Positions 8,501 through 62,300 of a DNA stretch of 64,000 nucleotides are shown in pieces. The stretch spans positions 7,423,517-7,487,516 of the forward strand of contig NC_088305.1 of the NCBI RefSeq assembly GCF_032854445.1. Reading direction: 5' to 3'. A program made the translations under genes and the position numbers. How positions within the stretch are numbered: position 1 is the first letter of the stretch; every line of letters begins with the position of its first letter. Under the pieces are notes generated by a model. That model made no database searches. It was given only the letters and a program-made list of their open reading frames with translations, and was not told the DNA's origin. The DNA is from Liolophura sinensis (lineage: Eukaryota; Mollusca; Polyplacophora; Chitonida; Chitonidae).

Positions 8501-11500
8501 CATGATGGCATGTACAGAGTGAGTGGGAATGCCTCACAGATACAGAAACTGAGATGTATGGTGGATCAAGGTACGTCCATCAACTCTTAACCAATCAGAT
8601 TACAGAAACTTAGATGTATTGTAGATCAAGGTATGTCAATCAACTCTTAACCAATCAGATTACAGAAAGTTAGATGTATGGTGAATCAAGGTACGTACAT
8701 CAAATCTCAACCAATCAGATTACAGGAACTTAGATGTATGGTGGATCAGGGTACGTCCATCAGCTCTTAACCAATCAGATTACAGAAACTGAGATGTATG
8801 GTAGATCAAGGTACATCCATCATCCCATGTTTCTAGTAAACCTCAAAACACCTTTCAAAACTTAAAGAGCTTCTTTGGTGTCAAAACATCTGTGTCTTAA
8901 AAGCAGGGTGAATTGATAAAGACTGGGATAATCTGAATGACTTTCCTAAATTGTGAAAATATTGCCGTGAATGAAAACCGATTTCATCAGAGTATAGGGA
9001 AACGAAATATTTCTGTCCCTTCCACTTTGCCTGGTGTGATGTCACCTACGAACACACGACGATCGCTGACGTATATCCACAAATGACGCTACCCTTTCGA
9101 AAGCTCTTGACGTCATCCCAGCATAAATGCCTTACTCAACGTCACATCTGCCTGATTCGACATCATACAGGGAATATTACCACGTCACATCAGGAAAATT
9201 TAACGGACACAGCCGAAGAATTTGTTTTTCATGGAATATTCAGTTACATGGGTTAAATAGTGTTATTCATCAAAATCCTATTGAAACATGGTGTTAGGCT
9301 TACTCCGTAGGATTTTTTTCATAACATTGTAATATTTCTACACAATTTGTATTCTGACCAGAGTGGCACTTTAATAGAACTCTCAGAATCAGGAAAAATG
9401 GGCAAGTTAGTCATGGACGAAATTTGAGGTCATTTAGTGTACTTTCTAATTCCTATCTAATTAATACATGCATATTGGCATATACATGTATACGTGCATG
9501 TTTTAGTGTGGGAATTTCAGTATCAGTGTTCTGCTGGGGTCTGCAAACTATTATAATTTAATGAAAAGCGTATTAAATTGACAACACATGCCTGGATATT
9601 TTACAATGCAGTAGAATACTCTTTATTACATATCCATAGAGTCAGTTAAGTGTCAAGTAAATCGAATGGAGCACACACATGCTCAGCATTTTATTTTATT
9701 TTTTTCACATTAATGGAATTCATACCAAAAAAAAAACATATTGATAACCTCATATAACATGTAATTAAATACAACACATGCTTTTATTAAAGTTAATTAG
9801 GTAATGCAGTACTCCTTTTTACCTCACACACTTCCCCAACCACCACCCGATAATACTAGGTATCTGATGAGTACATATGATTTTAAACTTAATATCAAAT
9901 GAAGCATGCTTCATTAAACTCTTTATGGTTTTACAAAAATCAACCCACATTCAGGGAACCTTTACTGGATGTGTCAGCCTCCCCACAAACCCTCACTCTC
10001 ACCCACGCCCCTGTCTCCCCCCCTCCCTCCCCCCAACTGTGTTTTACATCCTCTCGGACACATGCCATTCAGCTGTTGCCAGGAATAAATCCTGTCGTCA
10101 TGTCATTCACATATCGGAGAGTTGTCAAGCTGTGAATTGCATCACGCAAATTACATCGTCCTGTATCAGTTCAGAGGAGATCCAGTGCACATCAGTACCT
10201 GCCACCACCCACCCCTCCCCACCCCTCCCCACCCATACCATCCCATTCAGGACCGTGCTGACTCTTTGGTTTCTTAATGAAGCCTTGATTTCCCTGATCA
10301 GTTTTGCCATAGCCTGAGAGATATCGTTGTTCATGGTGACTTGTTAAGAATCAGTAGTTGCCAGTGTTTTGGGGGCCAGTGCCAATGTTTTAGTTAGTCT
10401 TTTAATACATTGGTAGAAGACAACTCGTCTATACCACCATCATGGCATGGAAAAGTTGGCCAGTTACATGCCAAAGTTCTGTTCTTTGAAAAAAAAAAGA
10501 CCACATTAGACCAAATGTATACATGTACATTCAGCTATAAAGTATCCCACATGAAGTTTTAAAAAAAAAAACTTTTATACTGTTTTGTTCAAGTGAGCTT
10601 GAACCTGGACGTTGGAAATCCGAAGGTGCTGCCAGTTTATCAATTTTAACCAATCATGTGCGAGTTATTTCTGTAACCAGAGAACTCAGCTGTTTCCGAT
10701 GGTATCATCTCAGCTGTCTGTTGCCTGTAGTAGGTAAATGCCTGAGGTACAAGTGCTGCAGCCTCATGTTTCTGGTTTGTCTTTAATGTGGATTATCTCA
10801 TGGCATCATAAGAATTCCACAATAAAAGTTGATTTATATAGTTCCCAAACACATCAGATCGGCCCAGTAGCACAGTTGGTAGAGCGTCCGCTTCTGGAGC
10901 GGTAGATCTTGCATCAACCCTGGGTCGAGTCACACCTAAGAACTCAAAAGAGGAAGTTGTAACTTTCTCGTTTGGTGTTCAGCATGAAGGGGATAGTGCA
11001 ACTACTGGATGACCCGTATCAGTATAATGGCTCGGGCGGGGCGGCTTACCTGCCTTCGGTAAGGCGTCTCAGTGAAGCAGCATTAGATAAAAGAGCGATG
11101 GAAATCCGTCCTGCAACAAGGAGGCACATGACATGCACTCTAAGGATTCCTTCGATACCATGTGACTGAAAAATTGTTAAGTACATTAAAACCATAAGCA
11201 CTGACTCACTCACGAAACACATCAGAACAAAATTGCTGTTGTCGTTAAGGACTCGTTCGACCCTTCTTCTGAAATAACTACATGTACTGTTAAATTATTT
11301 TTTTTGTCTTTTCTTTTGAAACCAAGCACCATGGTTTTGTAAACCTCTAACACTGGCCACCACCACACAAGTGGAAGTCACTGAACATTCCGTTATTATG
11401 TAACACAAGAATCAAGTTAATAAGCTAAGATAAGCCCTACTCTTGTCTTGGGTATGTTGACTCAGACGTTCTACGTTATAGCCTTTAGCAGTCTGTTATC

Positions 11501-14500
11501 TGGCTCCAATTTTTTGTCTGTTTTTAAAACGATTGTTCATTCTGAACAGTTCATGACAGTTCATGATTTTACCAAATCAAATTACAGGACAAGTCTGAGG
11601 CGTTTCATTGTTTTTCAGTAACGTTGAAATCACCAAATGAAGTTTTCATTTTCAGATCAAACTTACAATTTTCATGACCCAAACGTTTGGGACATCAACG
11701 TCCTCACCGGAGCCCTGAAACTTTTCTTCCGAGAGCTCAAAGAGCCGCTGTTCCCGTTTGACTCTTACAGCAGATTTGTGGATGCCATTCGTAAGTGCTG
11801 TAATTCTTCATATTTTTAAGACAGATATTAGTAATATATTATGTTCTTGTCCCAGTTGTTGTTGTTGTTGCCTCAAAGTCAAGTCCTGGCCCAGGATCGA
11901 ACCAAGAAAATGGTAGTTTGCTGCCATCTCGCTTTGTATGCAACACTGAGAGGTTAAAGCGAGGAAAAATGACTGGTTGACCTGGTGTGAGTATAATGTG
12001 ACTGGGTGAGGTGTCATGTCTGGTGTTTTTGGCATGGTACTTCAGTGGTGGCAGCACTTTGGCGGCATGGACTTACCCTATCGTGAGAAGACATAATATA
12101 TATATCTACACACATCAAATGACATGTACAACATTGAACCCCAAGCATATATACAGGTATTAGCAAAATATTACTGATTAGAACATATGACACCAATTTA
12201 AACTGGTTTTGCTGTAGTGCTACATCTTGTGGTCTTGAACATATGAATGGTTTTAAAAGTTGCTCTCAATTTTCGAAATAAAAAAAACATTGTTTGTTGT
12301 TAAATGAATAATTTTAATCTTGAGTAAAGGCATTAAGAACCTTGGTTATGTTAATGACACTTGATTTCTCTTTTCCTCTCTGAGAATTCAGGAGAATTGC
12401 TGAGGGCATTTTTTTTTATCATTATTTTATGAGAATAAAACACAACAACTTTTGCGATCCACTAAATGGATCAAGTGCGATAGGCTACTAATATATGAGG
12501 AAATACTAGCACTCTTAATTTATTGCCATGGAGACATGTCACAATATAACCACCTTGAAACCTTTTCAAAATCATCTACAATATGAATAATCTGTTTCTC
12601 TCATTTTATAGAGGTTCCCCAGAGCTCGGCCAAGCTGAGAGCCTTTAAAGAAGCTGTAAATGCCCTTCCCAAATGTAACTATGAGACTATAAGGCTGTTG
12701 TTCAGACACCTGAAAAAGTGAGTAGTACTCTTGTCTTATGTGCACACACTGTTCTGTAGTTGTTCACACCTTTTTAATGCGAGATTTATTTGATTTCTTT
12801 ATTTGATTGGTGTTTTATGCTGTACTCAAGGATATGTCACTTATACAACGACGTCCAGCATTATGGTGGGAGGAAACTGGGCACAGCCCGGGGGAAACCC
12901 ATGACCATTCACAGGTTGGTGACTGACCTTCCCATGTAAGGCTGGAGAGGAAGCCAGCATGAGCTGGACTTGAACTCACAGGGACTGCATTGGTGGGAGG
13001 CTCCTGGTTCATTGCGCCATTGCTGGTGTGCTAACCCCCTCGGCCTTGTTTCATGTAAGAGAAAGCTTAATTGTTGCCTCACCTGGCTGTTCTTTATAGT
13101 TATATAAGGCCTAGATTTTTGTGGATGTTATTCAAGTCAAATTTTTCTTTTGGGTTATATGTGTAAGACCAGTCCCAACATTAAAGGCTGTATTTACTGT
13201 GGTAAACAGTTGTTGTGATGTCAGAGTATCCAAAGAGCATAAGGGGCCTTCCTGGCAAACTGGTTAGCTTGGTTGTTGCACAATGTCGCACAATGAGCCT
13301 CTCACTAATGCAGTCGCTGAGAGTTCATTTCCAACTCATGCTGGTTTTCTCTCCAGCCTTACGTGGGAAGACCTGCTAGAAACTCGGGGATGGTAGTGGA
13401 TATTTGCCCTGTTTCCTCCCATCGCAATGCTCGCTGCAGTTGTATAAATGAAATATTGTTGAGTATGGCATATAACTCCAATAAAATAACTAAATAACAT
13501 ATTCCAAAACACCAGCTGTATGGCATGTAGAATGAATGAATGATTTCTGTCCGGTCATACATCAGAAGGTCTGACAGCAACCTGCGGATGGTTGAGGGTT
13601 CCCCCGGTTTCCTCACACATACATGACTTAATGTTGGCCGATGTCATATTTTTGAGTGCAATGTAAAACATCAATTAAATAAATAAATAAATGAATGAAT
13701 GAATGATTAAATTCAAAGGCTGTCAAAATGTACAGTTTGCTCTTCCCAGAGGCCCTTTATAACAATACTAACAGTATATACATTTCCATTTTGTCCAACA
13801 TGAAAATTTGTTAATAAAACATCACTGTTTATATTTAAATCATTCAGCTGAAATTATAAGTAAGCAGACGTGTTACAATTTACTTGTTGATATAATTACT
13901 GTTCTGTGCAAGTTCAAAGCACTTGTAGAAATACCTGGCATTCACAGTTACACAGCCTTTTGTTCCTGGCTCTTCCAGATGAATGACCTTATGCTGGTTA
14001 TAGCACTGACATTCCAGCCTTGGAATCCTTGAAAGGGGTTAAAGCGTTCTCAAAGTCTTGAAAGCCCTTGGAAAACAGCTTGTGAATTTGTTATTTTGGA
14101 AGAGGGGCAAAATGTGTCATGATAATGTTGTAGGATGTAGTCATCTCATGTAAGAAAGACATATTTTTTAACTTGCCAGCAAAAGCTTCCAAAATACATT
14201 TAAAATACACAAAACTATTTTCTCCTAAACCAGTTTGCCATGGACCGGAGCAGAAAGATTAATCTCACCTCTTCAATCAAATCTAAGTTGACAGCTCTTC
14301 AGTAAGCCATAAGCAGCCATTTAATGACTCGACCTGTTAATATATCCACTAACTAATTCACCAGGCAGCCACATATACATGTACTTGTAAGCTCCATCAC
14401 TGAATTAATCCAAAGCTGTGAACTCATTGGTCTTTCCTTTGTTACATCACAGACATACATAAAATACGCATTGCAACGTCACAGAAGAAATCGATGGGTT

Positions 14501-15407: not shown

Positions 15408-15467
<60 letters not shown>

Positions 15468-15727
15468 GAATTGTACATTTATAGTTGTAAACTTTCGAGC
15501 ACCTGTTAGATTTTATAAGCGTATATGATGATTGATTGCCTGTGCACATGTGATGCATGTTTACACATTTATATGTAGATGTGGTACAGTGTCTAATGGA
15601 AACATTCAGTCAGTAGGAATATTTCTGCCATTTTAATTGACATCATTCCCTTGTCCATGTGGACCGTGTTTGAATTAATCTTGGTTGATTCACAGTGATA
15701 GCTTCACCCGGCAGTCACACAGCATTA
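14800..15727. other. RhoGAP 3' UTR / flank with (TA)n microsatellite at 15409-15464
   Basis: No gene is recognised after the RhoGAP stop. The main feature is about 56 bp of alternating TA at 15409-15464. Open frames here are driven by this repeat. Confidence 0.6.
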
Positions 15728-17187
15728 GTTTGTGGAGTTACAAACTGCTTGTGTGGAGTAACAAGCATGTGATATCACTGCTTTTGTGAAGTTACATTCA
15801 TGTGACATCACTGCTTTTGTGGAGTTACATGCATGTGACATCACTATTTTTCTGGAGTTACAAGCATTTGACATCACTACTTTTGTGGAGTTACATGCCT
15901 ATGACATCACTGCTTTTGTAGAGTTACATGCATGTGACATCACTATGTTTCTGGAGTTACAAGCATGTGACATCACTACTTTTGTAGAGTTACATTCATG
16001 TGACATCACTACTTTTGTAGAGTTACATTCATGTGACATCACTGCTTTTGTGGAATTATATGCATGTGACATCACTGTTTCTGGAGTTACAAGCATGTGA
16101 CATCACTACTTTTGTGGAGTTACATGCGTATGACATCACTGCTTTTGTAGAGTTACATGCATGTGACATCGCTATGTTTCTGGAGTTACAAGCATGTGAC
16201 ATCACTACTTTTGTGGAGTTACATGCCTATGACATCACTGTTTTTGTAGAGTTACATGCATGTGACATCACTATGTTTCTGGAGTTACAAGCATGTGACA
16301 TCACTACTTTTGTGGAGTTACATGCCTATGACATCACTGCTTTTGTAGAGTTAAATTCATGTGACATCACTACTTTTGTAGAGTTACATGCGTATGACAT
16401 CACTGCTTTTGTAGAGTTACATGCATGTGACATCACTATGTTTCTGGAGTTACAAGCATGTGACATCACTACTTTTGTGGAGTTACATTCATATGACATC
16501 ACTGCTTTTGTGGAATTATATGCATGTGACATCACTGTTTCTGGAGTTACAAGCATGTGACATCACTACTTTTGTAGAGTTACATTCATGTGACATCACT
16601 ACTTTTGTGGAGTTACATTCATATGACATCACTGCTTTTGTGGAATTATATGCATGTGACATCACTGTTTCTGGAGTTACAAGCATGTGACATCACTACT
16701 TTTGTGGAGTTACATTCATATGACATCACTGCTTTTGTGGAGTTACATTCATGTGACATCACTACTTTTGTGGAGTTACATTCATATGACATCACTGCTT
16801 TTGTGGAATTATATGCATGTGACCTCACTGTTTCTGGAGTTACATGCATGTGACATCACTACTTTTGTAGAGTTACATTCATATGACATCACTGCTTTTG
16901 TGGAATTATATGCATGTGACATCACTGTTTCTGGAGTTACAAGCATGTGACATCACTACTTTTGTGGAGTTACATTCATGTGACATCACTGCTTTTGTGG
17001 AGTTACATGCATGTGACATCACTGCTTTTGTGGAGTTACATGCATGTGACATCACTGTTTCTGGAGTTACATGCATGTGACATCACTGTTTCTGGAGTTA
17101 CATTCATGTGACATCACTGCTTTTGTGGAGTTACATGCATGTGACATCACTATTTTCTGGAGTTACAAACGTGACATCATTCCTTAA
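15728..17187. repeat. 33-bp minisatellite with higher-order structure, about 44 copies
   Basis: Units of 33 bp (occasionally 30) alternate between variants: CTGCTTTTGTGGAGTTACAT-, CTATGTTTCTGGAGTTACAA- and CTACTTTTGTGGAGTTACAT-, each followed by GCATGTGACATCA or TTCATATGACATCA. The variants recur in a roughly fixed order, giving a superimposed period of about 99 bp. Because 33 is divisible by 3, long frames open on both strands. I treat those as a by-product, not genes. Confidence 0.95.
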
Positions 17188-24465: not shown

Positions 24466-24480
24466 CAAAAATAATTTCGG

Positions 24481-37600: not shown

Positions 37601-40600
37601 TCGTCAGTTATTGTTTACATACGTTTTGCTAAGTGTTTCCATGAAGGCTAAGAACAAATGTTAATCACGCGGGGATATCGTGTACCTTATCCCAGAGCAC
37701 TTGACATTCGATCACGTATGGGTAGACACTAGGGGACCGGGGATGTAGCTGACTGAATAACGTGCGCGACGCCTGGTTCCGGTTCTATCCCGATCGTGGA
37801 GAGAGAATTTGTCGATTACGCCGGTTTCACATACCGTTGGCCTTGGTAACAATAATCTAGTCTCGCTGTTGGTGCAGTCTTTAAAGTTCATTAAAAACAA
37901 CATGTCTCACACCAATATGATGTGTATATCTTTACGTGGGCAAGTTCGTCATTAACTTACCAAAGGTTGGTTATTTCCCTAGGGAATTTTAAATTCCTCC
38001 ACCTGTAAAACTCTGTCTGTGGTATAAGTAAACAAAAATTGAGTATGACCTTAACCAACAGCCAATCAATCAATCAGTCGATTGATCGATCGGATATGAC
38101 AAGTGTTGTCTATTTAATTTTATCACACTCTGTTTTATTTTATTTCATTGTTTTATAGATTTTGCATATTCGCTGTATCCATAACCATAAACGTTTGTTT
38201 GGTTGATATTTTATAAATTGCACAATGATAATCTTGCCGTGAAAAAAGGCCTATACGTACTCCTTCGTTATGAGCTATCTGTTCTGAAACCTTAGATGTG
38301 GCGCACTGGAACAATCTGGGTCAGGATGAGCTGAAAGCCACTCTTGAGTATACCCCGAACACGAACGTCGCCCGGAACGTGATCCTGTTCGTGGGGGACG
38401 GGATGGGCGTGACCACCCTTACCGGGTCGCGGATCCTGAAAGGACAGCTAAAACAGCGATCCGGCGAAGAGGAGCAACTCTCGTTTGAAAAGTTTCCCTA
38501 TTCCGCCATGATTAAAGTAAGTTTGCCTACAATCGAGAATTTCTGCCACGACTAAAACAAATTTGCCTACGATCAAGCATTTCAGCCATGATTAAAGCAA
38601 GTCTGCATATCTTCACCACACAGTGCAGAAAAACTGAAGTTAAATCCGTGCCTAGCTGTTTGAGGAAAGTTGCTGACTAACCGACAGTCAGTCCGAGAGA
38701 CCGACAGACCGACAGTAAATCAGATAGACATAGAGACTGACTGACGGACAAGTAGAATATTTGTAAACGCCGACATAAACGTAACCTTCTTAGTTGGTAA
38801 TTTATCTGACCTTTGATTACAGGTATACAACACCGACGCCCAGGTGCCCGACTCGGCGGGGACTGCCACAGCTTTTCTCTCGGGGGTCAAGACGCGCAGA
38901 GGAAGGATCGGGGTGGGGCCGGGAGTTCCGGATAACAACTGCACTGCGGCCCAAAGAGAACAGCTCTCCACCATCCTCGACTGGTCACGAGCGGAAGGTA
39001 GGTACTGGTGTGAATTAAAGACCCTTGAGGAGGGAAACTTAGAGATGGACACTCAAACACCCGGAAACTGACACTGCGAGATTTATTGGTACTGTGGGAC
39101 TCGAAACGAAAAACACTTAATTGTATTCTGACACAGGCGCTGCACATTTTAACCAGGGATGGACACAGGGAGCACAGGTCTTTGGGTATTGGCACTGTCG
39201 GATTAAAACACGCATATTTTGCGCTTTAAGGAAAAGACCTCTGAAAATCGAAGTAAGCATCACCAAATAGACCACTTAAAACTATGCATAAATATACTTT
39301 CATTTATACTTTTAGATTTTTGTGAAAATAATTAAAGGTGTTTAATTATCTGAATTCTAAGGTGGGTTTTATGGGCAATACTATCCGGGTTTAGGAACTA
39401 TGGCATCACAGGTATTTTTTCCAACTCTATTCTGGTGAACATCCTAGATACCGTGAATATGGCTCATAAAGCCCACCATAGTATTCAAACATTTGCATGC
39501 TTTTCAAATCTGAAAAATTAAATGAAAGTATTTTTACGCATAGTTTTCAGTTGTCTGTATGATGATTTCATATTTTGTCTTTCTTTCGCTTTAAGTTATT
39601 TTCTTAGCTATTTGGTGCATGGTTTATGTTAATTGTCGTTTTGGGAATTGGCCTTGTGATTATTGACCTGGAACGTCCGTATTTGTTTACGGCTGGTATA
39701 CAATGTCTGTTTCGACGCACATATTCGGGTATTTGTCCTGGAGGATAAAGATGGATTCGGGGACTGAGACATAAGACAGGAATAGACACTAGGATATCGG
39801 TATTCAGGTATTGACACAGAGGGATTAAAACAGGGACGCACACAGGGAGATGGGTACCCGTGTTCGGGCATTGAGACTATGGGATCAAAACAGGGATGGA
39901 TATTTGGGGATAGAAACTCGGGTATTGGCACTGAGGTGTTAAAAACGCAGGTGGCCAATCTGGCTGACAATCCGGGGATAGATTTTCAGAGAAGGATGGT
40001 TAGCGTTAGATATTCCAGATTCGACTTTCAGAGATTATTGGTACATATATGAAATAGTGACACACAGATGGCTATGTGTCGACAATGGCAGATTTGCTGT
40101 CTAAGAAAAAAAAAAGTAAGGGATACGGGATAATATGATTAATTCCAAAAGAAGTCATATTTAGTCGTGGTTCACCGGTGACTTTCTGGATGCGTGACGG
40201 TGACTTTCTGGATGCGTGACGTTTATTTACTGGATGGGTGACGTTGACTTTCTGGATGTGTGACGTTGACTTACTGGATGGGTGACGGTGACTTTCTGGA
40301 TGCGTGACGGTGACTTTCTGGATGTGTAACGTTGACTTACTGGATTGGTGACGTTGACTTTCTGGATGCGTGATGTTGACTTTCTGGATGCGTGACGTTG
40401 TCTTTCTGGATGGATGACATTGACTTTCTGGATGCGTGATGTTGACTTTCTGGATGCGTAACGTTGACTATCTGGATGCGTGATGTTGACTTTTTGGATG
40501 CGTGGCGTTTACTTCCTGGATGTGTTTTTTATTGTTTGTCGGCGGTTTTGGATTATAGGCTGTTTCAAGTACCTAGCGTAGGTAGTGGTTTCCTCCTGAG

Positions 40601-46600: not shown

Positions 46601-48389
46601 TCTCACCATGATGATGGCCACCGTCATATAAGTGAAATTTTTCTTGAGTACGACGTAAAACACCAATCAAATAAACAGACAAATAAATAAGAGCTCACAT
46701 AGATGTATAGTCAGTCCCCCTCATACATGTGTATCGGTGACAACTGTTTATCAGCACCCCTCTCCTGTGTACGGGGGGGAATATTCTTTTGTACGGCGTA
46801 AAATACCAATCAAATAAATAAATAAGCACCCTTCTACATAGAAACATGCCGAAAAGTTTAACTTTTATTCACCACAAAATTTATACATCCTGAAATCCAT
46901 AACAGTAGTCTAACTACATTTGCCCTTCTTCTTGAATATACATACAATAAACTCACGAGTCGAGAATGTCCTCGATGACGCTGAAGGAAATGTAAACTAC
47001 CTAGGTGATAGATTTTGAAGGGAAACTGTTTGAAAAACTTTGCTGTCAGTAAGCAACATACAGAAAGAACTATTCCAAACATGTTTTGGGTTAGCTGAAA
47101 ACTTGTAACAAATTAATGTAAAAACGGAAAACTTTAACATTATATAGAAAATACCTCCAGCTCTGGTAGTTCGATCTTGTGCTACAGGTTAACGGACTTT
47201 AATTTTTCGGATCGTTCATTTCACAATATGTTGATGTTTTTTGACATGCAGGTTTGGACTTCTTCAAAGCCTCTGACGGAAAACCAATGACAACCTTGCT
47301 GTATGGCTTCGGACCGGGTCACAAGTCACCTCGTGAAGATCTGACCAACGTGGACACAGGTAAGTGTCACGTGGTGAAGATCTAACCCATGTGGACACAG
47401 GGAGGTGTCACGTGATGGATGTCTAACCAATGTGGACACAAGCAGGTGTCACATGATAAAAATCCGACCAATGTGGACACAGGTACTTGTCACGTGATGC
47501 CCATGTGGAACCATTGATGCCCTGGCTTGACCAAACCCTTGACCAGTTAGGCACCGGCCAATGGGCGGTGTCTTCCATCCACAAACCTAACCTCCGTGAA
47601 AAACTCTCCAGCACAGCCTTAAATACCAATCAACAAATCTTATGTGTTTTAAATCAAAGTTTGTGTCACGTGAAACTTTACAAAAACTAGAGCATACCGT
47701 TTCCCGTCAAAGACACAAACACACAGAAAAATAAAATCCATTTAAATCCAGAGCTGTTGTTGAAGTCTTCGACATCGTATTATTGGCATAAATTGCCACG
47801 AGCTTTTGTTTGTTCCACTTACTATCCGTTCTATCCATGCGTACTGGTTCGTACTCAAACACGCTATCTGGCTAAGTTGATTAAACTCCATTCGGAATAA
47901 ACTGTTCAACAGAATTAGCTGTTACTTGTGACGTACATTCACTCGAACCAAAATGGAGGAATATAAGATAAAGCGAAGGCGGGGAAATCTGCTAATTTCC
48001 TTTCCTCGACCAGGTTTGATCCGCCATACCTAGAAGGGTCATTGGCGACAAAGACTCGGCACCTGGTGTATATGAACTATGTAGCCTACGCGAGATCTGT
48101 ACTTCGTTAGTGTCTATTTTTTTTTTTTTTAGTGATTAATAATCTCTTAGTCATATACAGTTTTCATTTATAAGAACTGATTTTCATTCCAGCTTCGGAC
48201 ATGTATCGCCAGCAGAGTGCTGTCCCCTTGGGCTCTGGCACACATGGAATGGAGGATGTAACGGCGCACGCCATTGGTCCGATGTCTCATTTATTTCGTG
48301 GGGTCAAAGAGCAAAACTATTTGGCACATGCAATGGCGTATGCTTCCTGCGTTGGCCAGAACAAAGCTCATTGTAAGCCAACAGACTGA
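34657..48389 (+). CDS. ALPL: Alkaline phosphatase, secreted form, complete, 10 exons
   Basis: Zinc/magnesium phosphomonoester hydrolase of the animal tissue-nonspecific type. Exons: 34657-34759, 38296-38516, 38823-38997, 41133-41302, 42529-42639, 42948-43050, 43695-43838, 44994-45185, 47252-47359, 48193-48389. All are GT-AG and phases join exactly to 507 residues plus TGA. Residues 1-23 form a signal peptide ([19 protein letters not shown]). Catalytic Ser119 lies in [11 protein letters not shown]. Metal ligands are Asp69 (VGDGMG), His180 and Thr182 (THATP), Glu342/Asp347/His351 ([13 protein letters not shown]), Asp388/His389/His391 (TADHSH) and His460 (THGMED). It aligns end to end with vertebrate ALPL but stops at CKPTD, without the hydrophobic C-terminal segment that directs a GPI anchor, so the product is probably soluble and extracellular. 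An in-frame ATG at 34561 would bury the signal peptide, so 34657 is preferred. Three donors (exons 2, 8, 9) are tandemly duplicated. Confidence 0.97.
34826..35048 (-). mobile_element. SINE family A copy, near full length
   Basis: Reverse-strand copy in ALP intron 1. It has TTTCACTTATACTACGATGG, CAGCATTATGTTGGGAGGAA, TGAGCTGTACTTGAACTCAC and a head ending GGGCCACGGAGGC. It begins within 100 bp of the exon 1 donor. Confidence 0.9.
35049..35855. other. ALP intron 1 segment, SINE remnants
   Basis: GGGATTGAACTCACAGGCC near 35346 is an antisense B-box-like fragment, and AAATTCTCTGTCC is repeated near 35320-35350. No exon is recognised. Confidence 0.4.
35860..36905. repeat. About 35-bp minisatellite, about 30 copies
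   Basis: Degenerate units of 34-36 bp: TCTGAACGATGTCGG, AAGAGAAACATTCATCTGTT. It lies in ALP intron 1. Irregular length and substitutions suggest an old array. Confidence 0.95.
36906..37710. other. ALP intron 1 segment, nothing recognised
   Basis: AT-rich sequence without a recognisable exon or repeat family. Confidence 0.4.
37715..38080 (+). mobile_element. Decayed tRNA-like SINE in ALP intron 1
   Basis: ATGTAGCTGACTGAATAACG with GGTTCCGGTTCTATCC about 35 bp later resembles A and B boxes. GAGAGAATTTGTCG and a tail of CCAATCAATCAATCAG follow. Related in layout to 28094. Confidence 0.5.
38503..38620 (+). repeat. 40-bp tandem duplication of exon 2 end plus donor (ALP), 3 copies
   Basis: GCCATGATTAAAGTAAGTTT (exon end plus donor at 38517) recurs at 38545 as GCCACGACTAAAACAAATTT and at 38585 as GCCATGATTAAAGCAAGTCT. 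The period is 40. The donor GT has become AC in copy 2 and GC in copy 3. Confidence 0.92.
39020..39210. repeat. Degenerate array, about 38 bp units, left part
   Basis: Repeats of GGGTATTGGCACTG-like and GGATTAAAACA-like words in ALP intron 3. They share wording with 39720-39975, across the fold-back element. Confidence 0.6.
39220..39600. mobile_element. Fold-back (MITE-like) element in ALP intron 3
   Basis: Long imperfect inverted repeat. The left arm CTTAAAACTATGCATAAATA, TACTTTCATTTAT pairs with the right arm GAAAGTATTTTTACGCATAG, TTTTCAG. Inner GGTGGGTTTTATGGGC pairs with GCTCATAAAGCCCACC. Pairing weakens outward to about 39220 and 39600. It codes for nothing, and a fragment of the same arm occurs at 29267. 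Confidence 0.8.
39720..39975. repeat. Degenerate minisatellite, about 38-42 bp units, right part
   Basis: GGTATTCAGGTATTGACACA, GTGTTCGGGCATTGAGACTA and ACTCGGGTATTGGCACTGAG are successive units, each followed by GGGATTAAAACAGGGA-like sequence. Confidence 0.8.
40176..40525. repeat. 22-bp minisatellite, about 16 copies
   Basis: Units of GTGACGTTGACTTTCTGGAT plus GC, in ALP intron 3. Confidence 0.95.
40735..41020. repeat. Diverged direct duplication in ALP intron 3
   Basis: AGGGTTTCTTGCTTCTTTGA and TCATGTCAGACGA(A/C)AC recur about 163 bp apart (near 40736 and 40899). Each is followed by TAGCACTCGACG(C/T)CCGTGGTT. Confidence 0.85.
41303..41935. other. ALP intron 4 segment, nothing recognised
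   Basis: No exon, RNA or repeat family recognised. Confidence 0.4.
42038..42440. repeat. About 97-bp pyrimidine-rich tandem repeat, 4 copies
   Basis: TTTCTTCATTGTCCATTTTT begins units at about 42041, 42138, 42234 and 42333. Each unit also has CCATCGACCTTGCCCCCTTC. It ends about 90 bp before the exon 5 acceptor. Confidence 0.95.
43051..43694. other. ALP intron 6, nothing recognised
   Basis: No array, SINE or exon seen in this intron. Confidence 0.4.
43908..44156 (-). mobile_element. SINE family A copy, full length
   Basis: Reverse strand, in ALP intron 7. The tail is TATTTATTTGATTGGTACTT at the left, the B box is TAAGCTGGACTTGAGCTCAC, and the head ends TCGACCACGGAGGCC at 44156. Confidence 0.9.
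44300..44530 (-). mobile_element. SINE-like element family D copy
   Basis: Inverted relative to 11868-12110: CCAAAGTGCTGTCGCCACGG, ACACCAGATATGACACCCCA, CTCAGTCACATTACACTGAC and TTGCTCTAACCTCTCAGTTC. Confidence 0.65.
44720..44938 (+). mobile_element. SINE family A copy, head damaged
   Basis: In ALP intron 7, 56 bp before exon 8. B box CGCTGTGAGTTCAAGTCCAG, GGATGGTCGTGGGTTTCCCC and tail GACCAATCAGATAAATAAAT are clear. Confidence 0.9.
45171..45500 (+). repeat. Degenerate duplications of the exon 8 end plus donor (ALP)
   Basis: The exon 8 boundary CCCATATTTGGTAGGTAACC (donor at 45186) with its following ACTCTGACCACGCC is echoed at about 45216-45240, 45280-45335, 45370-45415 and 45480-45530. 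The words TAACCACTCTGACCACGC, AAGAAAC and CCA(T/C)(A/G)TTTGGTA recur. Confidence 0.8.
45970..46437. repeat. 42-bp minisatellite derived from the exon 8 donor region, about 11 copies
   Basis: Regular 42-bp units: AAACACCATATTCGGTCGTT, AAGCACTCTGGCAACGCC, AAAG. Compared with the exon 8 boundary (AAACCCCATATTTGGTAGGT, AACCACTCTGACCACGCC, TAAG) the units align over the full 42 bp, so I infer descent from it. Reading frames on both strands are open only because 42 is a multiple of 3. Confidence 0.93.
46428..46691 (+). mobile_element. SINE family A copy, abutting the 42-bp array
   Basis: TCGCTCAGTAGGTTAGCGCG starts the head exactly at the last array unit. TAGCTGTGAGTTCAAGTCCA, a central block and AAACACCAATCAAATAAACA follow. 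Confidence 0.9.
46745..46826 (+). mobile_element. SINE family A tail fragment
   Basis: TACGGCGTAAAATACCAATC and AAATAAATAAATAAG after a G-run. Confidence 0.7.
47331..47500 (+). repeat. 41-bp tandem duplication of exon 9 end plus donor (ALP), 4 copies
   Basis: ACCAACGTGGACACAGGTAA (donor at 47360) and GTGTCACGTG recur with TGGACACA at 47351, 47392, 47433 and 47473. Copy 4 keeps CACAGGTACTT. Copies 2 and 3 have lost GT (CACAGGGAGG, CACAAGCAGG). Confidence 0.93.
47505..48192. other. ALP intron 9, remaining part
   Basis: No exon or repeat family recognised. A T-run sits near 48118-48131, before the last exon. Confidence 0.4.
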
Positions 48390-49915: not shown

Positions 49916-49917
49916 AC

Positions 49918-51475: not shown

Positions 51476-51479
51476 GGGT

Positions 51480-53160: not shown

Positions 53161-53394
53161 CTACTGCAGTTCAGTGTTCATTCAGTGTTAGCAGGACGTT
53201 TAAATTAACATTATTTATAGGTTAAGTGATCAACTTTAATTTGTCAGTGTGAAACATAGCCTCTAAAATTCTAGAACGAGAGACAAGGCAACCAGTCATG
53301 AATAGGCGTTTAGCATTCGTCACATCTTGTTTCTTCCAAATAAAAACGTCGATCCTGTTTTTCATATCACCCGTGGCTTTGCTGAAAGTCAAAA

Positions 53395-56300
53395 ATGGCG
53401 TCGGGTGAGGCTCAATTTGGAGATATGACCCAGCCTCGCTCGAGCCTCACCCAAGGCTCCACGGGAGAAATGAGCAGACCAAATAACCTGCAAAGGATAG
53501 CTCAAAAGAAAACTCAAGTTAGGAAGTATCCGAGGAACAAAAAGTTGGAAAAATTAGCAGTGTATTCGTCGTGCAAAGTAAGCGGAAGTGGTACCTTTGA
53601 TACACAACAACAACCACATAATATTGAGGTCGCATGTTTTGTTTACCTTTATGTCAGCGAGATCTCCAAGCTTACAGCAAGAATACTTGAATGGATAAAG
53701 CTACCGGATATTATGCCCGACAATTAAATAGTTCTGGTGTAACGCGTTCAAGTCCTAATCAGGGAAATTGAACCCTTATGACGGCGAGAAACTTGTCAAG
53801 AAAAACTAACAGCTGACTTAGCTCTAATGTATAGCTCTACCTAGCCCCGAAAGACTCCAACTCCTTTTCTTACACTGGTCTAGCGTCTTTGGAGTCTCAA
53901 TGCCTACAATGTTAATTTCGTACTCAATGAAGGTCCAGGCCGATTTTCTATGTTATCGAACAAGTCTCTCGCAAATAAAATCCCAAAGCTAAGCTGGAAG
54001 CTCCTCCCATAACCGCAGTGCGGTGGGTGCGTAAAGCAGGTCTTTAGCTTGGTGTCTTTTTATTTGCTCGTTAAAACAAATCCTACCTGCCATGATGGCT
54101 GTGGTAAGTGTAAACAATTTTCCCTCCTGTGTGTGGAGAGTCCCCACCCCAACATAGTTCATTTTGAAGCCAACAACTGCTGCAACATTTCACCAACACA
54201 GTTGTGAACTAGTAATAAAAAACTTGCTCCATCTGTTGGATCCATGGAAAAAAATTGTTCTCACTTTTGTAAAATTTTAAATTCAGCCAAATGAGTTATT
54301 GCTCAAATTTGGATGCACTCATTGGCTGGTTTTGTTTTAACATGATTTTTGAGACCAGCAAGCTGCTGATGAAGAAAGGTGAGGCAGCCGAAATTGTAGG
54401 GCGCATATTTGTGGAGGTCTGCACTTCTACATGAGACGCACTATAAGTGCCTGAGGTGTGAGTTGGTTTCACTTTGGCACTACAGCAAGAAGAGTAAATA
54501 TAAGGGCTTAGGCTGCATGATGTTACTGCAGTGACTTCAGAGTATCGGGGGGCCTCCGTGGCTCAGTCGGTTAGCGCGCTAGCGCAGCATAATGACCCAG
54601 AAGCCTCTCATCAATGCGGTCGCTGTGAGTTCAAGTCCAGCTCATGCTGGCTTCCTCTCCGGCCGTAAGTGGGAAGGTCTGCCAGCAACCCGCGGATGGT
54701 CGTTGGTTTCCCCCGGGCTCTGCCCGGTTTCCACCCACCATAATGCTGGCCGCCGTCGTATAAGTGAAATATTCTTGGGTACAGCGTAAAACACCAATCA
54801 AAAAAAAAAAAAAAAAAAAAATCAGAGTATCGGAGCAAAGGGGCTGTCATGCAGGACTGCCGCTGTGATTGTCAACCCCATGGACAAAAAAGTTGCATTT
54901 TCAAATCATGTTGTCTTGTGTGCACTTTAAGTCAGGTGTTTGGTGGTTTACCCTGGGAACTCTCATTTCCACCACCCACAAGTGTAACGGTTTCATATGC
55001 CGTATATCTCTGGAGATCTAATCTCCTTGTGCTCCATTTAAGTTTCCCACTCAGCTCATACTATACCATCCAAACATGCATGGACTTAACCAATTAAATC
55101 ATTTAGAATTTGAAATCATTTGGAAAGTGGAGAGTGTCTAGTCACACGGTACCAATCACACTGCTCAAAGGTAGAATTGAGCGCTGTTCCAGAAAATAGG
55201 TCGATGAAGCATGTGTGTATTTGTTGTGCTCAATGTGATTGTGACGATGTTGTTGACTCAGCAGAAAATTCAAATGGTGGCTTTCGCTTGTTGAATGCAG
55301 CTTAAACAAATGAAAGAAAAAAGTATTGAGTATTGTCTCAGGGATATTATTGGTTTAAGGGGTTACACATTTTATGTATAGCACTGAGTCTCAAGCTAAA
55401 CATTCGCTTAGACCACTCATCTACTCACCATTAGTACAGTGGATTAGATATCTTAAGATGCTTGATTGTTTTCCAGTCTGATGGATGTAAGTGCAATGGC
55501 TGGAAGAACCCTAACCCCCCTCCCAATCCCCCACAAGTGGACTTGTCCAGCCCCTGGCCAGCCTGACTGATCCTGTCGCAGCTGTGGACACACTCTAGGT
55601 TTGTAGCTGGTTTATTGGATTTTATTCCCATGTACATGTAGTCTTTAAGGGCTGCTTTGCAACTTAAACATCTTGTTGATTTATAAAATAACAGTCAATA
55701 AAATCTTGTTGATCAATGCAAAGGATTTATTATGAGTATGATAAAGTGAAGATCATCCCAAATATGATAGCACATCATAGTTGCCCTACAGTAACATCCC
55801 CCCCCCCCCCCACAGGACCAGCATAGAGTATCACACAGTACACAAGGTATCACACAGTACCAGCAATTGTTCGTGCCTGTGCTGTCTGATATTTGTTGAA
55901 GACCACTGGTTGCACATATCCATATGTCACACGTGGAAAAGTGTGTTTTCATCTTGCCAAAGGTTATTGTTTACATGAGCACTGCAGTTTCGTTCACCTT
56001 TTTAATAACTTTTTAAATGCTCATCATATTAGTGAAACTTCTTGAGTATGGCGTATAACAACAGTCAAATAAATGAATGAAATGACAACGCTGGTATTCT
56101 GCCAGGTGCACATGTGTCTCACCTGGAGAATGAGGCAGAGGAGGAGTTGAACTGGCTACTGAAGATCGTGGTGGATGTGGAGAACCTGTTCATGTGTGTG
56201 CACAAGGAGGAGGACCCAGAAACCAAACAGGTCTACTTCTGTCTGTTCAAGGTAAGAAAACAAGACAAGACAGGTCTACTTCTCTCTATTTGAGGTAAGA

Positions 56301-59300
56301 AAACAAGACAAAACAGGTGTACTTCTGTCCGTTCAAGGTAAGACAACAAGACAAACATGTCTGCTTCTGTCTGTTCAAAGCTAGAAAACAAGACGAAACC
56401 TGTCTACTACTGTCTGTTCAGGGTAAGAAAACAAGACAAGACAGATGTACTTCTGTCTATTCAAAGTAAGAAAAGTAGACAAAACAGGTCTACTGCTGTC
56501 TGTTCAAGGTAAAAAAACCAGACCATCAGGTCTCCTCCGTCTGTTCAGGGTAAGAAAACAAGACAAAACAGGTCTACCTCTGTCTGTTCAAGGTAAGAAA
56601 ACAAGACAAAACAGGTCTACTTCTGTCTGTTCAAGGTAAGAAATTAAGACAAAACAGGCCTACTTTTGTCTGTTCAAGGTAAGAAAACAAGACAAAACAG
56701 GTCTACTTCTGGCTGTTCAAAGTTAGAAAACAAGACAAAACCTGTCTACTACTGTCTGTTCAAGGTAAGAAAAGAAGACAAAACAGGTCTGCTTCTGTCT
56801 GTTCAAGGTTAGAAAACAAGACAAAACAGATCTACTTCTGTGTTATCATGGTAAGGAAACAAAGCAAAACATTGTTACTTCTGTCTGTTCAAGCTAAGAA
56901 AACCAGACAATACAGGTCTTTTTCTATCTGTTCATGGTAGGAAACAAGACTAAGCCTTTATGCTTCTGTTTGTTCACAAGGAAACAAGACAATGCTGATC
57001 TACTTTTGCCTGCTCAAATTAAGGACACAAGACAGCATGATCCTGAATGTGTGTGTATTTATTGTAACACCTATGACAGGTGTGGACAGCCAAAATATTG
57101 ACATAGATTAGCCAAGCGCTCTTACTTCTGGCTTTTCAAGGTAAAGAAGCATTTATAATGAGCATAGAAATGGCGTTGGAATGGAAGTAATGTGTGTAAC
57201 CACCCATATATTGTCAGAAAATAAAATTCTTCTGTTTTTGATTTTTTGTTACTTTGAAGGCTGGTCACTGCTGTTCAAGGAATGTTTGGAACAACCGATA
57301 TGTATTACTATACATGTACTATGTTCTGTTTTTCATTTTCTTCTGCAGTTATTAAGAAAATGTATCCTGAACATGAGTAAGCCAACCATAGAAGGACAGT
57401 TAGGGAGCCCACCGTTTGAAAAGCCAAGTATTGCAAAGGTATTACATTTATTAAATGAGACATTAAGCTAACTGTGCCCCTCATTTAGTATATCATCCAT
57501 GTTACATTATTGGATATGAAGTGTTTGACTTAACGGCTGTGTTAATATAGGCCTTCAAAAAAAACACTGACTGACAGACCATCTGATTTACAGAGCTATT
57601 TTTTCCAGCTTTTGCAGTGGGCTGTGGTTGTGCGGCAAATGTGCTTGCCATTCAGTCACAGATAAGCATGAGGTAGAGGCTTGTACTAGGCCCTCTGCCC
57701 AGATTCTGTCCACCACTATGCTGGCCACTGTCGTAGACAAGAAATGTTCTTGAGTATGGTGTAAAACACCAATCCAGTAAACAAATAAAATTTTTTTATT
57801 GATTTATTATTTTGATTGGATTTTACGCCGTGCTGAGGAAATACTTCACTTATGTACTGGCAGCCAGCATTATGGTATGAGTAAAACATTTACAGCTGGA
57901 GGGAACCGTCAACCCCACCACATGCATATATGGCAGAGCTTCCCATGTATGGCTGTTGAGGAAGCGAGCTTGAACTGGACACCTGTGTGGATTATACCTG
58001 TGCTCAGTGCCATCTAAGTCTTCAACCTTTTCAACTGCCTCTGTAACCAATCAGTCCAGCTCATGCTGGCTTCCTCTCCGGCCGTACGTGGGAAGGTCTG
58101 CCAGCAACCTGCGGATGGTCGTGGGTTTCCCCTGGGCTGTGCCCGTGTTTCCACCCACCATAATGCTGGCGTATTCTTGAGTACGGCGTAAAACACCAAT
58201 CAAATAAATAAATAAATGTAACCAATTATGCCAATATTTTGAAACATCCCGAGAGACACATGGGGTGTTGAGAAGTAATTTGAGAAGTTTTAAGAAGCTT
58301 GCTTCTTTAGTGAAACAAGCAAATCGTTTTGGCATTATTTTCGTAATAATTGTATGCAAAACTTCCACTGAACAAATGTGCATTAGCTTGAAGGTTGAAG
58401 ATGTACAGTGATACAATTGGATTCCCAAGTTTCGTGCTTTAACACCTTTAAACACATTTAATTATTTTACCAACTTGGATTTGATTGGTGTTGACACCAT
58501 ACTCAAGAATATTTCACTTATACGACGGCGGCCAGCATTATGATGGGAGAAAACCGAGCAGAGCCCGGGGAAAACCCACGACCATCTGCCGGGTGCTGAC
58601 AAACCTTCCCACGTGTGGCCGGAGAGGAAGCCAGCATGGGCTGGACTTAAACTCACAGCAACCGCATTGGTGAGAGACTCCTGGGTCACCAACTTGGAGC
58701 CACCTGTATTATAATCCTATCATTTCTGGGTAAATGTCCTTGATAGTGTCCCTGATATTTCAGGTTTATATTCCTTGACATACTTACCTGTAATGCAATA
58801 TTCTGTGCTGGTTGAAGGGAGTGACGAACTTTGTGCTGTACAAGTTTGGTCACCTGGCTGAAAAGGAATGGAGAACGATGTACGACCTGGCTAAGATGTT
58901 TCTGCATTGTCTGAACCATTGGAAGCTGGAGACGCCCACCAGTCGCAAACAGAACGCACAAACGGATGACTTCACCGCTTACCAGCTGAACTATACCAGG
59001 TATTTTCTTTTTTTTTTTTTTCAGCATGGTATAAGCCATTTGGTATTTCAGGGATATTGGAGTTTACACATAGTTAGATGAGACAGGGTGGGGGCTCTCA
59101 CAAACTACCGTGTCAAAAAAAAAGAAATGTTTTCTGATTTTATGAAATGTGTCAACAGTGCCTTTGAGTTGACAAGCAGATGTATACTCTGTTTACCAGT
59201 TACTATAAAACAAAGTTTACGCCTTTTAGCTATGTTAATTTCTTCAACGAGATGAATGTCGATTTATGTTGACCTAACGACTCGAGAATTTTGCTAGGGT

Positions 59301-62300
59301 GGACAAAGAGATGTTGAGTTAGTGTTTGGAAACTTATGGAAGTTTTTAGTTGAGTCAGTGGAGTGTTGTAGAACTCACACACGGATGCTGATTGGGAACT
59401 TTTTAAGGATGTGCATTGTGTGTTCTTACAGTATTATCGTTATAGGGATTACACTTTCTGAATATAGCACAGATTCTGCTGCTAAAATTTGACTGTGGGT
59501 TTTGAACCAGCGACCTCAGGATCAGGCACCAAATCACCAGCAAGACATGTTAAAGAAGAAGACAATTTAAAAAACATGACACTTTAGGCTGAAAAGAGCA
59601 CATTTTTCTCTCTTTGGTGGTGCCTGCTGCATAATTTTACGATTTTTCCGCACCATACTTATAAAGTCTGAAAATGGCAAAGCTGGCATCAATCGCTCCA
59701 TCGCATCCTCCATCTTTAACACCCTGTAATTTATGCTGGGGGGTGTGTTGAATCTCAGCCAATGAGAAACACTACAAACTGTCAGCTTGTTCGTGTAAAC
59801 TGGCAACCTACATCCAACATTCCGCTTTCCCGATCGTCAAGCGCTACCTTCTGGGAAGAAAACTTCTATCGGAAATGTACGAACTGCATTTTGGCGGTTT
59901 CCGACAGCAATTCTCCTCCTGACACAAAAGACTTCAGGACTAGTTCTTAGGCAAAATAGCGTCGTCCACAGCGGATTTGGCGCTGACTTTATTTATAATT
60001 TATCTACTTGGGGTACATATTAAAATTTTTTTTTATGGCATGCACCTGCGAGGAAATGCATACTTTTTTCAATGGTATTTCATTGATATTTACATTTTCT
60101 TCTCCTTTAAGTGTCTAGACCACTCAATTGAAGGCCAGTTTTCAGCACTAGAATCTCTGCTATATTCAGAAAGTGTAATCCCTATTAACAATAATACTGT
60201 TACTTAGTCCACTTCCTAAAATGACATTTAAACCTGTCTGATATGTAGAGTTAATGCTTGGAATCTTTTGATTGAAGTTTTATGTTAAATCATTAGGGTG
60301 TTATAAGACTCACACACTAATAGGAACTATTTAAGGCTGCTTATGGAGTTTACGTGATTTAGAACATGGATTTCACAGAGTATTTCACAGCCTGTTTTAT
60401 ATGTGAATCATATAATTCAAACTACAATGTCCTCAGTGTACTCTTTACATGTGACATTGTATTCAGATGAAAAAAAAAAAGTGTGATCAAACACACAAAC
60501 AGACCAGCATGCAAGTTTATTATAGAGCCTTTCTGTCACCAGGTGGCTGTGCTACTGCCATGTGCCAGCGTTCTGCGACAGTCTACAACGCTATGAAACT
60601 ACACTAATCTTCGGAAGGACACTCTTGAGGTCTGTTTTCCAGACCATGAGGAGACAACTCTTGGACAAGTTTCGGGCCGAGAAGGAAAAAATGCCTCCTG
60701 AAAAAAGGACTTTGGTTTTGAATCATTTTCCGAGGTAAAACCACAGACTGGTGATTTTTGTGTTTGGTATTTTAGCTCAACTGTGTAAAGTACTGCTGTG
60801 ATGTAATGTTTCTGAGGTAAAACCACAGACTTGTGAATGGTTTTCTTATTTTAACTCGCCTAAGCAATGTTCATGGGGAGAGTACAGCTTACATTGGGAA
60901 TACAGTGACACTTAAAACAATGTTAAGATAAATAATAAGGGTCCAATCTAAAAAAGCACTGCTTGTATTGCGCTCAGGTGTTACATATACATAAAGCACA
61001 TTAGCACATGGGGGGTAATCATCATTGATGCCCTGCATGTGTTTTAATGACCAAAAATTACAAAATTCATGACACATATTTTTTTTGTGTATTAAAATCC
61101 ATGTTGATGTAAATTAAAATATTTAGGTACTTTATGTATTGAGCTGAAGTGTGGCATAGATCATACATGCCATAGAGACAAGCCTAGTTATTTTAGTTAT
61201 TGATCACATGCAGGCTTAGGTGAAATAGAAAAGCTCTGCATGTAAGTAGCTAAAAATCCATTTGTGGCAAATGGTAGCCCTGCTACCAAATTTCTGTTTT
61301 ATCAGAATTTTGTCGGTGGTTAATAGACAACCTGAGGAGGATCATGTTCAAGATGCCTGTCTCTCAAGGGATATGATGCTAGGATATCTGTAGAAAACGG
61401 TCACAATTATGCAGAATTCTGTATCACTTATCTCACAGGAGTTGGTTTGTATGCTTCAGGTTTTTGTCCATGTTGGAAGAAGAAGTTTATGGAGCCAACT
61501 CGCCCATCTGGGACCCAGACTATTCCCAGAACCCTGCCAACATACCTATCACCTCACCCCCCACAAGTATGTTTACATGTAGTTCACCCAAGTCAGTATG
61601 ATGTTATGTTTTACCAGTAGCAGCATTTGTGTACTAGTGTCAGCATATATGTGTACCAGCATCAGCATACATGTGTACCCAGTATCAACATATATGTGTA
61701 CCAGTATCAGCATATATGTGTGCCAGTATCAGCATACTTGTGTGCTAGTATCAGCATATTTGTGTACCAGTATCAGCATATATGTGTACCAGTATCAGCA
61801 TATACATGTACATATGCTTACCAGTATTAGCATACACGTGTACCAGTACCAGTATCAGCATACATGTGTACCAGTGTGAGCATATACATATATATGTACC
61901 AATATCTATATTTGTGTACCAGTATCACCATATATCTGTACCAGTATCAGCATGTATGTGTACCAGTATCAGTGTATGTGTACAGGTATAAGCATGGATA
62001 CCAGTATCAGCATACATGTGTACCAGTATCAGCATGGGTTACAAGTATCATATATATGTACCAGTATCAACATGAGAACCAGTATCGTGTTGATCCACCA
62101 ATAAGCTTAGCATAGTGCATAATCATAGTTTTTACATGTTTTCGTACTGGCACTAATGAGGTTACTTGGTTACAGCATAGTTCATACCACAACGGTTGTT
62201 CCCCTAATAAGTGAAGCTTTAGGATTGAACCCAGCTCTAGTTGGGTTGGCTGTGGCTTTAAGTCAGGAGGTTTGTCAGGTTTCTGATGAAAAGCACGTGA

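What the first reader, a model, noticed from the sequence alone, without database searches (positions are those of the whole stretch)
8541..60860. Splice donors repeatedly seed tandem arrays in three unrelated genes
In six of 27 recognised introns, the real exon end plus its 5' splice site is the first unit of a tandem repeat extending into the intron: RhoGAP exon at 8570 (60 bp x5), ALP exon 2 (40 bp x3), ALP exon 8 (42 bp, degenerate then about 11 regular copies), ALP exon 9 (41 bp x4), KAT2 exon 3 (43 bp x about 21), KAT2 exon 6 (82 bp x2). Units are unrelated in sequence, so this is not one repeat family spreading. I saw no case spanning a 3' splice site. One-sidedness suggests a mechanism tied to the donor (for example R-loop or replication-transcription collision, or selection tolerating duplication downstream of the used donor). 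I know of no general description of such a pattern, but cannot check the literature.
Basis: partly seen in the sequence, partly recalled or inferred. Interest (0 to 1): 0.85.

Follow-up and report, generated by a model that had tools for sequence, protein, structure and literature searches.

The report
Splice-site-spanning minisatellites ("mirages") in a chiton
In a chiton genome, short tandem repeats sometimes start inside the end of an exon and run into the intron, copying the splice site many times; this kind of repeat was already known from amphioxus under the name "mirages", and here it turns up in a mollusc, more at exon ends than at exon starts but not only there.

Summary
Six of 21 exon ends that I could annotate in the window (RhoGAP, alkaline phosphatase, KAT2) are the first unit of a tandem array running into the intron; no intron-side copy spans any of 18 acceptors. 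The genome matches the Liolophura japonica assembly.

The pattern is not new. Tandem repeats that copy splice sites ("mirages") are described in amphioxus globin, Adh, troponin C and PGBD5 genes, at 5' and 3' sites (passages).

Donors are spanned in 12 of 231 (11 of 230 without one decoy), acceptors in 4 of 244 (p = 0.04-0.07). So acceptor cases exist, the bias is about 3:1, and donor occupancy (5%) is below intron-interior occupancy (about 10%). The window (29%) is an outlier. Array starts per base are 2-3.5 times denser in the last 50 exon bases than in introns (p = 0.001-0.03, post hoc, weaker without doubtful cases).

Most likely: ordinary minisatellite birth filtered by splicing. Copies on the intron side of the used donor are spliced out and tolerated. 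A mutational preference for exon ends is not excluded.

The parts
8537..8822 (+). RhoGAP-gene exon end (exon 8493-8570) plus donor as first unit of a 60 bp x 4.8 array
   Evidence: TRF; spanning score 60 at +180
38501..38600 (+). Alkaline phosphatase exon end (donor 38516|38517) as first unit of a 40 bp x 2.5 array
   Evidence: TRF; score 26 at +40; exon identity
45171..46430 (+). Alkaline phosphatase exon end (exon 44994-45185) as first unit; degenerate copies to 45400, then 45973-46430 42 bp x 10.9
   Evidence: TRF; score 20.5; 34 of 42 identity between exon/donor unit and distal consensus, shuffled maximum 24
47334..47499 (+). Alkaline phosphatase exon end (exon 47252-47359) as first unit of a 41 bp x 4 array
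   Evidence: TRF; score 45 at +41
56225..57034 (+). KAT2 (PCAF_N) exon 3 end (donor 56251|56252) as first unit of a 43 bp x 19 array; GT kept in 14 of 18 further copies
   Evidence: TRF; score 56.5; PCAF_N; copies
60725..60846 (+). KAT2 exon 6 end (donor 60734|60735) duplicated once, 82 bp downstream; 30 of 40 bases alike
   Evidence: score 23 at +82; not reported by TRF

Best explanation
These are mirages: minisatellites born from a short tandem duplication (units of about 26-120 bp) whose breakpoints straddle an exon-intron boundary, then expanded by ordinary repeat turnover. The first unit keeps the coding sequence and the used donor intact; every extra copy lands in the intron and is spliced out, so the array is close to neutral although it carries many decoy donors. 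The same happens at acceptors, with the last copy used, but less often, because a working 3' splice site (branch point, pyrimidine tract, AG) needs tens of bases and upstream AG copies compete. Shown: the arrays, their position, the intron-side direction of copies, the presence of both donor and acceptor cases, the donor-to-acceptor ratio in the sample, and the ordinary conservation of GT in the decoys. Inferred: use of the exon-proximal site (from protein homology, no RNA data), neutrality, and the reason for the asymmetry.
For: Window: 6 of 21 donors spanned, none of 18 acceptors by an intron-side array. Sample of 274 exon hits (173 loci, 268,395 bases): donors 12 of 231, acceptors 4 of 244, exon middles 1 of 204, shuffles 0 of 1425; the 16 junction cases were printed and inspected. 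Of the 12 donors, 10 have copies on the intron side only; the other two are a decoy second copy of one kinesin exon end (L105) and L172, where two donors stand 30 nt apart and the Pfam match ends at the first. All 4 acceptors have copies on the intron side only, so the last copy is the homologous one. Occupancy rises from exon into intron: 1.3, 2.6, 5.2, 5.6, 6.5, 9.5, 11.3% from -40 to +160 around donors; 0, 0, 1.6, 2.9, 4.5, 4.5, 5.7% around acceptors, as expected if selection filters a common intronic process. The lean to the donor side holds inside introns too: 50 of 693 points at +20, +40, +80 against 29 of 732 at -20, -40, -80 (p = 0.008), so it is not special to the junction. Decoy donors are neither purged nor specially kept: GT intact in 81 of 88 copies against 75 expected from dinucleotides of the same copies, over 9 arrays with at least 4 copies. 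Intron-only arrays are not enriched for donor motifs (sense 2, antisense 1 of 60 at score 4 or more). Unit lengths show no clear bias to multiples of 3: 2 of 6 in the window, 6 of 13 among the donor arrays (a set by a slightly looser overlap rule).
Against: Pure tolerance predicts array starts at exon ends no denser than in introns; they are denser (9 in 9.5 kb against 23 in 84 kb, ratio 3.5, p = 0.001; against the nearest 200 bp of intron ratio about 2, p = 0.03; with 7 arrays p = 0.02 and 0.14). In the window, donor occupancy (6 of 21) is above intron occupancy (96 of 657), the reverse of the sample, and far above the sample's donor rate (p = 0.001), although the window was picked for this. 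The donor/acceptor difference outside the window is only p = 0.04-0.07.
Confidence: 0.72

Rival explanations
1. Donor-linked mutagenesis: transcription or splicing at the 5' splice site (R-loop, fork collision, U1-bound nascent RNA) raises the rate of tandem duplication there, so donors seed arrays.
For: Array starts 2-3.5 times denser per base in exon ends than in introns; donors exceed acceptors about 3:1 in the sample and 6 of 21 to 0 of 18 in the window; sampled donor arrays have a higher mean G/C skew than intron-only arrays (0.19 against 0.04, p = 0.08).
Against: Donor occupancy is below intron-interior occupancy (12 against 26 of 231); intron-only arrays do not carry donor motifs; G/C skew of the six window arrays is -0.22 to 0.20; acceptor arrays exist, and within 8 bases of the junction array edges are about as dense at acceptors (2 in 1.9 kb) as at donors (2 in 1.75 kb); the start-density test is post hoc and small.
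Confidence: 0.17
2. Composition effect: minisatellites start more readily in G+C-richer, more complex sequence; exon ends are such sequence, and selection removes the arrays that would lie inside exons.
For: Donor-spanning arrays are G+C-richer than intron-only arrays (0.46 against 0.37, p = 0.003).
Against: Partly circular, since donor arrays contain exon sequence; does not by itself give the donor/acceptor difference.
Confidence: 0.25
3. Selected function: the repeated donors act as a U1-binding platform or as a reservoir of alternative 5' splice sites.
For: GT kept in 85 of 95 copies against 70 expected when compared with the first unit, 12 arrays; one kinesin exon has two plausible donors 30 nt apart, in frame (L172).
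Against: The excess shrinks to 81 against 75 of 88 when copies are compared with each other; unit lengths are not clearly multiples of 3; few copies are better donors than the real one (2 of 95).
Confidence: 0.05
4. Intron gain by tandem duplication of AG|GT sequence (Rogers model): the intron itself arose from the array.
For: Proposed for amphioxus globins and human segmental duplications.
Against: ALP introns interrupt the Pfam model at about the same positions (49, 98, 156, 265) in the window gene and its paralogues on C3, C5 and C9, so these introns are older than the arrays. Not tested for KAT2 and the RhoGAP gene.
Confidence: 0.02

Closest known systems
Amphioxus 'mirages' (Adh3, globins BflGb6 and BflGb9, troponin C, PGBD5)
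   Same: Tandem repeats whose unit includes a real exon-intron boundary, in several unrelated genes, with short units that differ from gene to gene; both 5' and 3' boundaries; in PGBD5 the first repeat abuts the 5' splice site (PMC3087553 and PMC3902484, passages read).
   Different: Chiton, not cephalochordate; up to 19-22 copies here; rates and the donor/acceptor ratio measured here on a sample; no RNA, polymorphism or somatic data here.
Internal tandem repeats at exon-intron boundaries in human segmental duplications (PMC2812944)
   Same: Tandem repeats straddling exon-intron boundaries (passages read).
   Different: There they change transcripts and may form new introns; here homology suggests an unchanged protein, and the ALP introns are old.
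Ordinary intronic minisatellites
   Same: Overlapping range of unit sizes and copy numbers; 60 of the 80 arrays in the sampled loci lie in introns only.
   Different: They do not include a splice junction; median period is shorter (31.5 against 60 bp) and G+C lower.

Membership tests
Mirages (splice-junction-spanning minisatellites of amphioxus) | Tandem unit contains a real exon-intron boundary | tested here: met
   6 of 21 window donors; 12 of 231 donors and 4 of 244 acceptors in the sample
Mirages (splice-junction-spanning minisatellites of amphioxus) | Both 5' and 3' boundaries can be affected | tested here: met
   Acceptor arrays in L159, L170, L088 and, with an ambiguous acceptor call, L077; not in the window itself
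Mirages (splice-junction-spanning minisatellites of amphioxus) | Unit length about 10-160 bp, different in each gene | tested here: met
   Window units 40-82 bp; donor-array periods 26-109 bp
Mirages (splice-junction-spanning minisatellites of amphioxus) | Normal mRNA is made despite decoy sites | not testable with these tools
   No RNA data; homology only
Mirages (splice-junction-spanning minisatellites of amphioxus) | Length polymorphism and somatic instability | not testable with these tools
   Two near-identical KAT2 copies both have 19.0 repeats, but they look like an assembly duplication
Mirages (splice-junction-spanning minisatellites of amphioxus) | Reported host is a cephalochordate | tested here: not met
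   Contig count 632, a contig of 96,433,062 and one of 37,343,639 bases match Liolophura japonica. This concerns the known range, not the mechanism.
Dispersed repeat family or transposon | Array unit recurs at unlinked sites | tested here: not met
   KAT2 array: only itself and its duplicate 11.4 kb away; RhoGAP array: no other match to the array among 40 scored of 247 candidates. The other four arrays were not tested.
Intron gain by tandem duplication | Intron is young and bounded by duplicated exon sequence | tested here: not met
   ALP exon boundaries shared with paralogues on C3, C5, C9; KAT2 and RhoGAP introns not tested

The most novel reading that the evidence does not exclude
The exon side of a used 5' splice site is a hot spot for the birth of minisatellites in this genome: array starts are several times denser there than in introns and than at acceptors, because transcription or co-transcriptional splicing makes that DNA prone to tandem duplication; chitons and lancelets would then share this independently.
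Probability: 0.17. Interest if true: 0.78.

Novelty: new member of a known kind. Interest (0 to 1): 0.42.

Why it matters
It shows mirages in a mollusc, so the phenomenon is not a cephalochordate peculiarity, and gives a rate from a sample: about 5% of donors and 1.6% of acceptors. Natural series of near-identical donors in tandem, with only the exon-proximal one expected to be used, are a ready test of how the spliceosome picks between equal 5' splice sites, and of whether duplication is more frequent, or only better tolerated, at exon ends.

Tried and rejected
Simple reading 'donors are enriched': rejected by occupancy. Then noticed that occupancy of intron points is inflated by inserted copies, so a per-base density of array starts was computed as a second, post hoc test; it gives a moderate excess at exon ends. 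Both are reported. With arrays limited to periods up to 60 bp the excess is 6 against 1.95 expected (p = 0.015).

Scoring was tightened between (each side of the junction must match on its own; threshold 14), after seeing that some matches were one-sided. With the looser rule the counts were 14 of 231 donors and 6 of 244 acceptors at threshold 16, or 15 and 7 at 12; sample 1 alone gave 5 of 91 and 2 of 98 at threshold 14. The plan in the notebook spoke of a p-value per junction; I used a score threshold with pooled shuffles instead, and flanks of 400 instead of 450 bp in sample 2.

GT conservation in decoys looked high against the first unit, but much of this was a reference effect; the control against other copies left 81 against 75. 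Donor motif as seed of intron-only arrays: no. R-loop skew: no clear signal. Organism first guessed as amphioxus; assembly statistics showed a chiton, and the mitochondrial gene order read by eye agrees.

Rows dropped before counting: TCP1 3 of 50 listed hits (long intronless-like frames), ALP 11 of 34 (6 in the window, 5 last exons), RhoGAP 3 of 45 (2 in the window, 1 single long exon), myosin 51 of 81 (letter limit), kinesin none of 132; kinesin and myosin lists themselves hold only scored candidates (122 of 207, 65 of 213). Of the 274 exon hits kept, 43 donors and 30 acceptors were not counted because the best site scored under 0.5 or was a repeat of another hit. One decoy second copy (L105, 27414708) was removed for the 11 of 230 figure.
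Full report
WHAT WAS CHECKED. Exon ends were set by protein homology and splice consensus: alkaline phosphatase by Pfam PF00245 and, for one exon, solved structures, KAT2 by PCAF_N, the RhoGAP gene by PF00620 (a PH match stays below its cut-off), remaining exons by eye. I could place 21 donors and 18 acceptors. Six donors have a downstream copy that spans the junction (scores 20.5-60). In one search, which tested part of these junctions, the others score at most 9.5 except one; they fail the two-sided rule. The exception is the acceptor at 48192 (score 14), whose match lies 420 bp downstream, in and beyond the last exon, and is not an intronic array. Donors against acceptors in the window: 6 of 21 against 0 of 18 intron-side arrays, p = 0.02, but the window was chosen for this pattern.

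ORGANISM. The genome has 632 contigs and 609.46 Mb; one contig is 96,433,062 bases and another 37,343,639. The Liolophura japonica assembly paper gives 632 scaffolds, 609,495,693 bp, longest 96,433,062, N50 37,343,639 (PMC11068029, passages read). The mitochondrial order cox3-nad3-nad2-cox1-cox2-atp6, read by eye from translations (only COX1 was matched to a family), agrees with a chiton (order in chitons recalled). I take the host to be this chiton.

PRIOR ART. [quoted passage not shown] Passages of PMC3902484 add PGBD5, where the first repeat abuts the 5' splice site, and cite troponin C. The original Adh paper is not in the library (identity recalled). Of eight paper searches, seven were on this topic and one on the organism. 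Their listings, some capped (15 of 38), show no title or abstract opening on mirages in a mollusc; papers listed but not opened could hold some. This is a limit of the searches, not proof of absence.

GENOME SAMPLE. Before fetching, I set the plan in the notebook: internal exons hit by Pfam families, exon ends called blind to repeats, donors against acceptors against control points. 274 exon hits were used: CCT chaperonins 47, alkaline phosphatase paralogues 23, RhoGAP 42, kinesins 132 and the first 30 of 81 listed myosin hits; 173 loci, 268,395 bases. 231 donors and 244 acceptors were callable. With the final rule donors are spanned in 12 (5.2%), acceptors in 4 (1.6%), exon middles in 1 of 204; none of 1425 shuffles reached the threshold. 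Control points in introns: 5.6, 6.5, 9.5, 11.3, 10.4, 10.4% at 20, 40, 80, 160, 240, 320 bp after donors; 2.9, 4.5, 4.5, 5.7, 7.8, 9.5% at the same distances before acceptors. Fisher p for 12 of 231 against 4 of 244 is 0.041; for 11 of 230, after removing a decoy, 0.066. The lean to the donor side is also seen inside introns (50 of 693 against 29 of 732 points within 80 bp, p = 0.008).

WHAT THE CASES LOOK LIKE. Each of the 16 positives was printed; several arrays are cut by the end of the locus. Donor cases include CCT exons with 66 bp x 7 and 109 bp x 5 arrays, a RhoGAP exon with 43 bp x 11, kinesin exons with 73 bp x 22 and 40 bp x 11, and a myosin exon with 66 bp x 6. The weakest (L100) has 8 exact bases on each side and no TRF call. 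Acceptor cases: a kinesin exon whose first 23 bases close a 64 bp x 6.7 array (L159), a 27 bp unit of pyrimidine tract plus CAG repeated about 15 times and ending 7 bases into the exon (L170), L088, and L077, whose acceptor call is ambiguous. So 3' cases exist, and as at donors the copies lie on the intron side.

TWO NULLS, TWO ANSWERS. But intron points inside an array are mostly inserted copies, whereas a junction is an original base. I therefore also counted array starts per base outside arrays: 9 in 9.5 kb of exon ends (-50..-9), 23 in 84 kb of intron 40 bp or more from the donor (ratio 3.5, p = 0.001), and about 2-fold over the nearest 200 bp of intron (p = 0.03). Without two doubtful arrays the p-values are 0.02 and 0.14. 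At acceptors the corresponding counts are 3 in 10.2 kb against 2.3 expected; within 8 bases of the junction both sides have 2 edges in under 2 kb. This is a lead for donor-linked mutation, not a proof: it is post hoc, small, and donor arrays are G+C-richer (0.46 against 0.37).

MECHANISM. The decoy donors are retained much like other parts of the unit (81 of 88 against 75 expected), unit lengths are not clearly in frame, and intron-only arrays do not carry donor motifs. The simplest account is that short tandem duplications are frequent in and near introns in this genome (60 intron-only arrays among the 80 found in the sampled loci, with 13 at donors, 4 at acceptors, 3 over exons); those straddling a donor leave exon and first donor intact and put the rest in the intron, where splicing removes it. 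Duplications straddling an acceptor must carry a complete 3' splice region to be harmless, which would explain the lower rate. Use of the exon-proximal site is inferred from homology.

THE WINDOW IS UNUSUAL. 6 of 21 against 11 of 230 (p = 0.001), and its intron occupancy is 96 of 657 points, 14.6%, so here donors exceed introns. The two KAT2 cases lie in a segment that is present twice in the assembly, 11.4 kb apart. The compared copies differ by 1 substitution and 23 small indels in about 4.25 kb, 19 of them bases missing from the window copy, which looks like a false duplication; both copies have the 19-unit array at exon 3 (the exon 6 duplicate was not compared).

VERDICT. Real, well observed, already known in kind, new for a mollusc as far as my searches go. 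Interest lies in the rate, the moderate donor bias and the open question of whether duplication is more frequent or only better tolerated at exon ends.

Noticed in passing
window 53389-64000 and G000:C11:7488368-7495566: Five of the six PCAF_N exons of KAT2 are matched twice, about 11.4 kb apart (exon 2 only in the copy outside the window); about 4.25 kb compared differ by 1 substitution and 23 small indels, 19 of them bases missing in the window copy, and the window's exon 2 does not read through. Looks like a false duplication with consensus errors.
   Followed up: partly
G000:C99: Contig C99 holds seven matches to mitochondrial COX1, spaced about 15.5 kb: a mitochondrial concatemer, probably an assembly artefact.
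   Followed up: no
window 48193-48640: Start of the last ALP exon with its acceptor has a partial copy 420 bp downstream (score 14), like a small exon duplication.
   Followed up: partly
window 12784-13013, 24479-24706, 34826-35049, 44747-44949, 46429-46688, 54548-54810, 58479-58688: A dispersed repeat of about 220 bp, about 76-88% identical between copies, on both strands; looks like a short interspersed element.
   Followed up: no
L172 (G000:C9:5669865-5672719): Kinesin exon with two good donors 30 nt apart, produced by a donor-spanning duplication; could add 10 in-frame residues.
   Followed up: no
L105 (G000:C11:27411137-27415230): Kinesin exon followed by a 73 bp x 22 array that includes a larger, near-identical copy of the exon's later part without a good acceptor: a decoy exon.
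   Followed up: partly
window 15744-17167: 33 bp x 44 array downstream of the last RhoGAP exon found, open over 90-180 codons in places; not linked to any exon that I found.
   Followed up: no
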